The notes under the pieces: model-generated | What the model was told of the DNA's origin: nothing | Seen by the model: only the letters and a program-made list of their open reading frames with translations | The model's database searches: none | Made by a program: the position numbers and the translations under genes | DNA from: a virus | Length of the DNA stretch: 25,266 nucleotides | IMG/VR virus record: IMGVR_UViG_3300044678_000229 | Coordinates: 1 to 25,266 of that record | Reading direction: 5' to 3' (one strand) | Shown here: positions 10,048-11,935 of the stretch, in pieces | Numbering within the stretch: position 1 is the stretch's first letter | Layout: every line of letters starts with the position of its first letter

Positions 10048-10077
10048 TTGACCATCTTCACAAAACATGGTTAACAT
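10048..10077 (+). promoter_or_regulatory. Possible promoter for the regulator (leaderless transcript)
   Basis: TTGACC (10048-10053), an 18-base spacer, then TAACAT (10072-10077). The predicted start falls around 10083-10085, at the ATG of the regulator. No ribosome site precedes that ATG, so a leaderless message, as known for the phage lambda cI gene, would explain both observations. Confidence 0.35.
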
Positions 10078-10084
10078 CATACAC

Positions 10085-10321
10085 ATGAAAATTGCACAGC
10101 AAGCCATAAACGACATCAAATACAAGATCGAGTCAGCCGGTTATCGGATGTCGGACTTGTGCCGAGTCGCAGAGATTGATCAGGCGCAGCTCTCGCGCTG
10201 GGTTAACGGTCAGACAGAGCCACTTTACAGCACCGTCATACGCTTGGAAGAGGCCGCCAATGCGCTCATTTCAGCGCGTTTGCAGGTGCTCAACAAAGCC
10301 ATGGAGGATGCCGTCAAATGA
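10085..10321 (+). CDS. Cro/XRE-like helix-turn-helix regulator
   Basis: A 78-residue protein from ATG 10085 (an in-frame ATG at 10067 would add six residues). Residues 22-46 form a helix-turn-helix: MSDLCRVAEIDQAQLSRWVN, ending in NGQTEP, which is the usual turn after the recognition helix in Cro/CI-type repressors. A last helix (STVIRLEEAANALISA) would dimerise. It sits at the head of the rightward middle operon, divergent from the leftward operon, with operator-like repeats between. It probably switches between the two promoters. It overlaps the next gene by four bases. Confidence 0.8.
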   Translation: MKIAQQAINDIKYKIESAGYRMSDLCRVAEIDQAQLSRWVNGQTEPLYSTVIRLEEAANALISARLQVLNKAMEDAVK

Positions 10322-10992
10322 TTCACTATCACGGCACTCCAATCAGTCCCATCAAAGCAATTCAAACAATGGCAGGGAAAAACTTTTGTATTTCCTACGC
10401 CAGACCTGATGATTTGCAAAGATGTTTACAGATTGGACAATCCTTGATGCTGGACAACGGCGCATTTAGTGCCAAAACAAGAGGATTGGAATTCAACTTA
10501 ACTGGCTTTTATAAGTGGGTTGAGCCTTTGCTGGCGCATCCTCATTGGGCGGTTGTTCCTGATGTAATTGATGGGACTGTCGAACAACAAAAAGAGATGG
10601 TTAAAACTTGGTGTTTCCGTAAAGAATTTGGAATTCCTGTATGGCATTTAGGCTTGCCAATTTCATATTTGCTAGAGTTATGTGACCAATGGGGGCGGGT
10701 GTGCTTTGGGTCAGCAGGGGAATATTGGCAGATTGGCACTACAAAATGGTGCGGCAGGATGGATGAGGCATTTAATGCACTGGTTAAAACCTATGGAAGA
10801 CAAATACCTTGGGTACATGGCATGAGGATGTTGGGACAAACAGGATACCCATTAGCAAGTGCAGACTCTACAAATGTTGCTTTACACCATGCAGAACATA
10901 TCGAATGTGCTGGCTGTATGGCAAAAAGAATTGATGCAAGAAACCCCCTAGCTTTGTGGGAAGAAAAACCATTACAGGAGAAGTTAATATGA
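10318..10992 (+). CDS. TGT/DpdA-like (tRNA-guanine transglycosylase-fold) protein, candidate base-modification enzyme
   Basis: A 224-residue protein, ATG overlapping the upstream stop. It starts MIHYHGTPISP and shows ordered motifs that line up with the TIM-barrel of transglycosylases. LMLDNGAFS (43-51) resembles the TDSGGFQ base-pocket motif; VVPDVIDG (79-86) the second Asp; PVWHLGLP (107-114) and CFGSAGEYW (129-137) the substrate-binding glycines; HGMRMLG (168-174) the MG.GTP loop; and ADSTNVA (182-188) the nucleophilic Asp region. C197 and C200 with nearby His echo the zinc site. It is much shorter than bacterial TGT. The next gene encodes a queuosine-precursor transporter, which supports a role exchanging guanine for a 7-deazaguanine in DNA (DpdA) or tRNA. 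The fold call is inference by motif order. Confidence 0.55.
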   Translation: MIHYHGTPISPIKAIQTMAGKNFCISYARPDDLQRCLQIGQSLMLDNGAFSAKTRGLEFNLTGFYKWVEPLLAHPHWAVVPDVIDGTVEQQKEMVKTWCFRKEFGIPVWHLGLPISYLLELCDQWGRVCFGSAGEYWQIGTTKWCGRMDEAFNALVKTYGRQIPWVHGMRMLGQTGYPLASADSTNVALHHAEHIECAGCMAKRIDARNPLALWEEKPLQEKLI

Positions 10993-11468
10993 TTTATGCA
11001 TTCATTTACATTGCCGCATTGGTTGCCGCAAATCTGTTGGTTGCTTGGCTAGGAGTCTGGTTTAGTCTTGTCAATGCCTTTGTCTTGATTGGATTAGATT
11101 TGTCATTGCGTGACAAGTTGCATGATCTTTGGGAAGGTGACAAGTTAGCCATAAAGATGGGTGGCTTGATTGCAACTGCCAGCATCATTTCTTATGCCAT
11201 CAATCCAGCAACAGGAATGATTGCCTTTGCATCTTTGGCGGCATTCAGCTTGTCAATGGTTGCTGATTCATTAGCCTATCAATATCTCAAAGGTAAAGAT
11301 TGGATGATTCGGGTCAATGGATCAAATACCGCTGGCGCATTGGTTGACTCTATTGTTTTTCCAACGATTGCCTTTGGCGGTCTAATGCTAGAAATTGTTG
11401 CATTGCAATTCATTGCAAAAGTTGGCGGTGGATACATTTGGTCAAAATTATTGGTGAAATTTAAATGA
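10989..11468 (+). CDS. VUT family (YhhQ-like) queuosine-precursor transporter
   Basis: A 159-residue integral membrane protein. Start ATG 10989 overlaps the previous stop as ATGA, with AGGAG upstream; a longer frame from 10956 is not needed. About five to six hydrophobic helices are visible. Conserved VUT/COG1738 motifs are recognisable: LIGLDLSLRD (33-42), ISYAINP (67-73), ADSLAY (92-97), R.NGSN (108-113), VDSIVFPTIAFG (119-130). Bacterial YhhQ imports preQ0/preQ1. The protein is shorter than cellular versions and lacks their extra N-terminal helix. It forms a pair with the TGT-like gene and shares its lower GC (26 of 60 bases in one row of each, against 39 of 60 at 11581-11640). It probably supplies modified-base precursor. 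Confidence 0.85.
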   Translation: MIYAFIYIAALVAANLLVAWLGVWFSLVNAFVLIGLDLSLRDKLHDLWEGDKLAIKMGGLIATASIISYAINPATGMIAFASLAAFSLSMVADSLAYQYLKGKDWMIRVNGSNTAGALVDSIVFPTIAFGGLMLEIVALQFIAKVGGGYIWSKLLVKFK

Positions 11469-11935
11469 GAATTATCGGAATCGATCCTGGTCTGTCTGGC
11501 GCTGTGGCCGTCATCTCGCCCGAAAGCCTGAAGATATTCGATATGCCGACTATGACGGTGGAGCGCAACGGCAAAGCCAAGCGGCAGGTCAGCGCCAGCG
11601 AGCTGGCCGAGCTGCTGTACCTGTACTCTGGCAAAGACTGTCATGTCTACTGCGAGCGCGTGTCAGCAATGGCTGGCCAGGGCGTGACAAGCGTCTTCAG
11701 CTTTGGGCGCAGCTTTGGCATGATCGAGGGCATTCTGGCCGCGTTCAAACTGCCAGTGACATATGTCGCACCGGCCACTTGGGTGAAGGCCGTTGGCCGT
11801 GGACAGGGCAAGGATGCCAGCCGCGCAAGAGCCATGGAACTTTTTCCAAGCAATCAGGCCGACTTCAAGCGCGTCAAGGATGACGGCAGATCGGACGCTG
11901 CCTTGATCGCATATTGGGGCAAGCATCATGGCTGA
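11465..11935 (+). CDS. RuvC-like Holliday junction resolvase
   Basis: A 156-residue RuvC/RNase H-fold nuclease. RIIGIDPGLSGA (2-13) carries the first catalytic Asp (D7), VYCERV (61-66) the Glu (E64), and DDGRSDAALIAYWG (139-152) the final acidic pair (D140/D144). The FGRSFGMIEGIL and APATWVKAVG segments are usual for phage members. These enzymes cut branched DNA to resolve replication and recombination intermediates before packaging. The start overlaps the upstream stop (ATGA), and the end overlaps the next gene by eight bases. One row of this gene is 65% GC. Confidence 0.9.
   Translation: MRIIGIDPGLSGAVAVISPESLKIFDMPTMTVERNGKAKRQVSASELAELLYLYSGKDCHVYCERVSAMAGQGVTSVFSFGRSFGMIEGILAAFKLPVTYVAPATWVKAVGRGQGKDASRARAMELFPSNQADFKRVKDDGRSDAALIAYWGKHHG

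What the first reader, a model, noticed from the sequence alone, without database searches (positions are those of the whole stretch)
10318..11468. TGT/DpdA-like protein paired with a queuosine-precursor transporter
A short protein with transglycosylase-like ordered motifs is coupled by a 4-base overlap to a VUT/YhhQ-like transporter. Known phages that put 7-deazaguanines in DNA use DpdA, sometimes with precursor genes or a transporter. Here no synthesis genes (FolE, QueD, QueE, QueC) were seen, so the phage may import preQ0/preQ1 and exchange it into DNA or tRNA. The pair also has a lower GC (43% in sampled rows) than the next gene (65% in a sampled row), suggesting joint acquisition. The transglycosylase is far shorter than usual, so a compact new subfamily is possible.
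Basis: partly seen in the sequence, partly recalled or inferred. Interest (0 to 1): 0.8.

Follow-up and report, generated by a model that had tools for sequence, protein, structure and literature searches.

The report
Phage DpdA–precursor transporter gene pair
This virus carries a small enzyme, related to ones that swap guanine for a 7-deazaguanine in phage DNA, directly coupled to a membrane protein that probably imports the replacement base; both protein families are known, but the two-gene pair recurs in many unrelated phages and seems not to have been described as a unit.

Summary
Window 10318-10992 encodes a 224-aa protein, and 10989-11468 a 159-aa Vut_1 membrane protein that overlaps it by ATGA. 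The first is a genuine phage DpdA relative. It falls in PHROG_887 (E 8e-47), which also holds CAjan DpdA, shown by knockout to be needed for DNA 7-deazaguanines. Profile-profile P against DpdA1 is 2e-14. Asp46, Asp82 and Asp183 are invariant in 59 diverse relatives, and AlphaFold gives a confident barrel.

It is not a new compact subfamily. Short singleton DpdAs (225-285 aa) are common, and two phages with one, 7-11 and MED16, have low-level dADG in their DNA.

What goes beyond the literature I could read is the pairing. Around phage VUT genes, 73 of 79 adequately flanked loci carry this short DpdA on the same strand. Both gene orders occur, and partners have been exchanged (16 DpdA x 14 VUT clusters in 21 combinations). 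The best reading is an import-and-exchange module needing no synthesis genes. Substrate, transport direction and DNA-versus-tRNA target are inferred. Phage preQ0 transporters beside DpdA pathways were published in 2018-2021.

The parts
10318..10992 (+). short singleton DpdA-like guanine transglycosylase, 224 aa; D46, D82, D183, H5, H110, H167, R170 invariant among relatives
   Evidence: PHROG_887 E 8e-47, hhalign to DpdA1 P 2e-14, invariant residues, model pLDDT 93.2 with eight strands, BFVD fold matches to phage queuine tRNA-ribosyltransferases
10989..11468 (+). Vut_1 (COG1738/YhhQ-like) membrane transporter, 159 aa, its start overlapping the preceding gene
   Evidence: Pfam Vut_1 3.6e-14 above cut-off, phrog_4899 4.9e-37, all-helical model pLDDT 91.8
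10989..10992 (+). ATGA start/stop overlap coupling the two genes
   Evidence: sequence
10976..10980 (+). AGGAG, probable ribosome-binding site of the transporter gene, inside the end of the DpdA-like gene
   Evidence: sequence
10303..10307 (+). GGAGG, probable ribosome-binding site of the DpdA-like gene
   Evidence: sequence
10067..10321 (+). small HTH_3 regulator overlapping the DpdA-like gene by ATGA; same transcription direction, not a conserved partner
   Evidence: Pfam HTH_3 2.1e-7; found in only 18 of 81 close loci
11465..11935 (+). RuvC-like Holliday junction resolvase overlapping the transporter gene by ATGA; flanking gene, not a conserved partner
   Evidence: phrog_1770 3.8e-36; 28 of 81 close loci

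Best explanation
The pair is a minimal 'import and exchange' module. The Vut_1 protein brings a free 7-deazaguanine base (preQ0, preQ1 or a relative) into the infected cell. The DpdA-like enzyme then replaces guanine with it in nucleic acid, most likely phage DNA, which would help against nucleases that recognise guanine-containing sites. Shown here: membership of the DpdA group, conserved catalytic Asp pattern, barrel fold, Vut_1 identity, overlapping reading frames, absence of most synthesis genes in the stretches held, and recurrent partnership. Inferred: the transported base, the direction of transport, DNA rather than tRNA as target, and the benefit.
For: PHROG_887 contains P0001, MED16 gp38, the 7-11 protein and CAjan DpdA. 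CAjan dpdA inactivation abolishes DNA 7-deazaguanines (PMC6884629). 7-11 DNA holds dADG (0.02% of G) and MED16 DNA holds dADG (0.13% of G); both encode only a singleton DpdA. Profile-profile P 2e-14 over 175 columns with PCFH/PVWH, HAFG/HGMR and SCDSS/SADST aligned. D46, D82, H110, D183 invariant in 59 sequences. Model pLDDT 93, with BFVD matches to phage queuine tRNA-ribosyltransferases at E down to 1.4e-9. VUT-centred search: short DpdA on the same strand in 73 of 79 flanked loci. DpdA-centred: VUT beside it in 74 of 80 close loci, while other neighbours reach at most 28 of 81. Partner exchange in 21 cluster combinations and both orders. Isolates with the pair: PEAT2, Phc, LHE71, Tbat1_6, AB3P2, Pam5, RHph_N3_2, Phleasolo.
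Against: No biochemical data for any paired DpdA. Modification in the two measured singleton phages is very low and MED16 DNA was cut by most enzymes tested. Hutinet 2019 saw no correlation of YhhQ with a phage group, and Orion (singleton DpdA) had no modification. P0002 misses the NCBIfam equivalog cut-offs for queuosine-precursor transporters (31.9 vs 50.95; 20.1 vs 252 bits), so substrate is unproven. No solved TGT is in the top 50 PDB fold matches, and direct profile comparison with bacterial TGT finds only the DSGGFQ/DNGAFS motif. E. coli phages also carry the VUT although E. coli has its own YhhQ, so need for the transporter is not obvious.
Confidence: 0.6

Rival explanations
1. The pair modifies host (or phage) tRNA rather than DNA: the importer raises precursor supply and the short transglycosylase charges tRNA anticodons during infection.
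For: Enzyme superfamily acts on tRNA in bacteria; annotation in records is 'queuine tRNA-ribosyltransferase'. DNA modification in two singleton phages is under 0.2% of G.
Against: CAjan DpdA of the same PHROG acts on DNA and is needed for it. The TGT C-terminal zinc site is not conserved here (C197 and C200 in 8 of 59) and no homology to bacterial TGT beyond one motif was detectable. A MAG that contains a near relative's contig has its own TGT and QueC, so tRNA modification would be redundant if it is the host.
Confidence: 0.2
2. The Vut protein transports something else (for example another purine or vitamin) or exports, and is linked to the DpdA-like gene for another reason such as shared anti-restriction island mobility.
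For: Vut_1 is a broad 'putative vitamin uptake' family; curated equivalog cut-offs were not met.
Against: Neighbour specificity is far above that of other neighbours, survives partner exchange and order inversion, and the family's best studied member, YhhQ, handles preQ0/preQ1 (literature cited in PMC6884629 and PMC6266253).
Confidence: 0.15
3. The DpdA-like protein is a decayed or repurposed barrel without transglycosylase activity.
For: Short length; undetectable modification in some singleton-DpdA phages such as Orion.
Against: Strong purifying selection (median dN/dS 0.056) and invariant Asp and His residues across 59 sequences.
Confidence: 0.05

Closest known systems
Singleton phage DpdA (Hutinet 2019 third group; MED16 'DpdA/TGT_1' cluster), e.g. 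Salmonella phage 7-11 and Pantoea phage MED16 gp38
   Same: Same PHROG, 30-33% overall identity, same invariant residues, similar length (234-261 aa), no synthesis genes
   Different: Those two have no Vut gene beside the DpdA; here the two genes overlap
DpdA1 of Seuratvirus CAjan / 9g type
   Same: Homologous, with aligned catalytic motifs
   Different: 306 aa, inside a FolE-QueD-QueE-QueC cluster
Phage preQ0/preQ1 transporters of Pantoea phage Vid5 and Enterobacter phage EC151
   Same: Vut_1 transporter in a phage that also has DpdA, proposed to salvage preQ0
   Different: There the transporter sits in a synthesis cluster; here it is a two-gene unit
Bacterial YhhQ (COG1738)
   Same: Vut_1 family
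   Different: Only 159 aa and below equivalog cut-offs

Membership tests
phage DpdA (DNA guanine transglycosylase) | profile-level homology to a proven DpdA (CAjan) | tested here: met
   hhalign P 2e-14, 98.3%; same PHROG_887
phage DpdA (DNA guanine transglycosylase) | conserved catalytic Asp residues | tested here: met
   D46, D82, D183 in 59 of 59; D46 and D183 align with CAjan motifs, while hhalign places CAjan D105 against D85 rather than D82
phage DpdA (DNA guanine transglycosylase) | (beta-alpha)8 barrel like other phage DpdA/TGT proteins | tested here: met
   eight strands, pLDDT 93.2; BFVD matches to phage queuine tRNA-ribosyltransferases, the best at TM 0.68
phage DpdA (DNA guanine transglycosylase) | 7-deazaguanine exchange into DNA | not testable with these tools
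   only relatives measured: 7-11, MED16, CAjan
canonical bacterial tRNA-guanine transglycosylase | detectable homology to PF01702 proteins or solved TGT structures | tested here: not met
   no Pfam match; hhalign P 0.19, motif only; no TGT among the 50 best PDB fold matches shown
canonical bacterial tRNA-guanine transglycosylase | C-terminal zinc site | tested here: not met
   C197/C200 in only 8 of 59 relatives
YhhQ / Vut_1 transporters | Vut_1 match above curated cut-off | tested here: met
   53.8 bits vs 27.2
YhhQ / Vut_1 transporters | equivalog-level match to queuosine-precursor transporter | tested here: not met
   31.9 vs 50.95 and 20.1 vs 252 bits
YhhQ / Vut_1 transporters | six membrane helices | tested here: inconclusive
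   five modelled helices, the first 46 residues long and less certain at 21-30, so possibly two
YhhQ / Vut_1 transporters | preQ0/preQ1 uptake | not testable with these tools
   needs a growth or tRNA assay

The most novel reading that the evidence does not exclude
Short DpdA and Vut transporter form a self-contained, widely exchanged phage module for DNA base hypermodification that lives entirely on imported 7-deazaguanine, with partners re-matched many times, so that many phages treated as unmodified or undecidable carry environment-dependent base modifications.
Probability: 0.4. Interest if true: 0.65.

Novelty: new variant of a known kind. Interest (0 to 1): 0.42.

Why it matters
In 2019 the DNA modification state of singleton-DpdA phages was called hard to predict, and phage YhhQ was said to correlate with no group. 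The near-obligate pairing seen here gives a concrete, testable answer for a part of that group: they import the base. It also predicts that modification depends on the medium, which could explain low or absent modification in laboratory stocks.

Tried and rejected
Sequence search of the PDB with the family profile found nothing relevant. The PDB fold search gave generic barrels (transaldolase, ribulose epimerase; E 7e-3 at best), not TGT, and nothing for the transporter (one ECF S-component at TM 0.54, E 2.6, not significant). A DpdA-VUT fusion suspected in L206 was an ORF-extension artefact. Synthesis genes were sought and not found, except one sub-threshold QueC hit in G004 (14.2 bits vs 22). 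The idea that phages carry the transporter because the host lacks one was dropped: E. coli phages carry it too. Anti-phage defence models did not match. The bacterial-genome scan gave a single MAG contig, too weak to name a host; the MAG's only Vut_1 hit lies on that same viral contig. A paper recalled from memory (Cui et al. 2023, DpdA3/DpdA4) was not held, so its subfamily names were not tested.

Full report
What is there. The window is a 25,266-base viral contig with structural genes, portal, terminase and primase-helicase. On the + strand a run of four genes overlaps by ATGA at each junction: HTH regulator 10067-10321, DpdA-like 10318-10992, Vut_1 transporter 10989-11468, RuvC-like resolvase 11465-11935. 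The pair is the lowest-G+C 1150-bp stretch of the contig (42.1%; mean 50.9%, sd 2.9) and both genes are under strong purifying selection (median dN/dS 0.056 and 0.104).

The 224-aa protein. No Pfam, NCBIfam or PADLOC model matches, but PHROG_887 does at 8e-47. That family also takes in MED16 gp38, the Salmonella phage 7-11 protein and CAjan DpdA. In GenBank phages 105 records have a relative. A profile of 49 viral sequences aligns with a seven-sequence DpdA1 profile at P 2e-14 over 175 columns, with DNGAFS/DSGAFS, PVWH/PCFH, HGMR/HAFG and SADST/SCDSS in register. One register is uncertain: hhalign pairs CAjan D105 with D85, which is not invariant, although D82 is the invariant residue. D46, D82, H110, H167, R170 and D183 are present in all 59 sequences that are under 85% alike. 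AlphaFold gives pLDDT 93.2 and eight strands in the barrel order. The viral fold library returns phage queuine tRNA-ribosyltransferases; the PDB returns only generic barrels. Direct comparison with 31 bacterial TGTs finds just the DSGGFQ motif. So this is a DpdA relative, not a canonical TGT.

Length. Members of 225-285 aa are usual in this group: 7-11 234 aa, MED16 261 aa, SW9 276 aa. The compact-subfamily suggestion therefore falls.

What relatives do. CAjan without dpdA lacks all 7-deazaguanines (PMC6884629). 7-11, with only a singleton DpdA, has dADG at about 0.02% of G; Orion, also singleton, has none. MED16 has dADG at 0.13% of G and little protection against restriction enzymes (PMC8306585).

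The transporter. Vut_1 at 53.8 bits (cut-off 27.2), but below equivalog cut-offs for queuosine-precursor transport. The model is all-helical, with a first helix long enough for two membrane passes.

The partnership. Among 80 closest IMG/VR loci of the DpdA, 74 have a Vut gene beside it, against 18-28 of 81 for the regulator, resolvase and PP-loop neighbours of the window. Loci cut by contig ends lower all these counts. In 40 DpdA clusters (70% identity) spanning several seeds, 19 have a member with a Vut gene nearby, always on the same strand and in either order. Starting instead from three Vut proteins, 73 of 79 loci with at least 1 kb on both sides carry a short DpdA on the same strand. The seeds were themselves Vut genes found beside DpdAs, so this does not sample all phage Vut genes: Mycobacterium and other Rhizobium phages with distant Vut proteins were not examined. 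Partners are exchanged: 149 distinct protein pairs fall in 16 DpdA and 14 Vut clusters in 21 combinations, and the window's Vut type sits beside DpdAs 33-43% identical to the window's in 43 loci. Retention of adjacency through exchange and inversion is the strongest argument for a shared pathway.

Synthesis genes. QueC, QueD, FolE and QueF do not reach their cut-offs in the window or in 13 long relatives, with controls ringing in 8-12 of 14 genomes. The records may be incomplete and QueE was not searched.

What is known. Vid5 (2018) was reported as the first phage with a preQ0/preQ1 transporter and EC151 (2021) as another, both inside synthesis clusters. Hutinet 2019 suggested uptake for singleton-DpdA phages but saw no correlation of YhhQ with any group. 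Literature searches found no description of the two-gene pair, though only open-licence papers are held.

Verdict. An ordinary DpdA relative in an interesting, recurrent and apparently undescribed two-gene arrangement. Import followed by exchange into phage DNA is the most likely mechanism (0.6); tRNA as target is the main rival (0.2).

Noticed in passing
L022:604-1829 (-) and L022:5001-6160 (+): One contig carries two DpdA-Vut pairs on opposite strands; one has a DpdA 37% identical to the window's but a Vut 88% identical to it.
   Followed up: partly
L086:4705-5726: Caulobacter phage DMCA: a short gene annotated 6-carboxytetrahydropterin synthase (QueD-type, 98 aa) abuts the start of a short DpdA-like gene.
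   Followed up: no
window:11928-12752: PP-loop/PAPS-reductase-like protein two genes downstream, in 18 of 81 close loci; whether it could act on a 7-deazaguanine is unknown.
   Followed up: partly
Mycobacterium phages such as MF373843 36152-36424 and Rhizobium phages such as NC_041908 45316-45576: Distant Vut-like genes; RHEph04-type phages have a synthesis-cluster DpdA about 10 kb away, and it was not checked whether the Mycobacterium phages have one.
   Followed up: no
one of L001-L080: A single close relative of the DpdA-like gene reads only 136 aa before a stop, either a broken copy or a sequencing error.
   Followed up: no
window:10010-10037: Inverted repeat GGGGATC...GATCCCC followed by a T run just upstream of the four-gene run, a likely terminator.
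   Followed up: no
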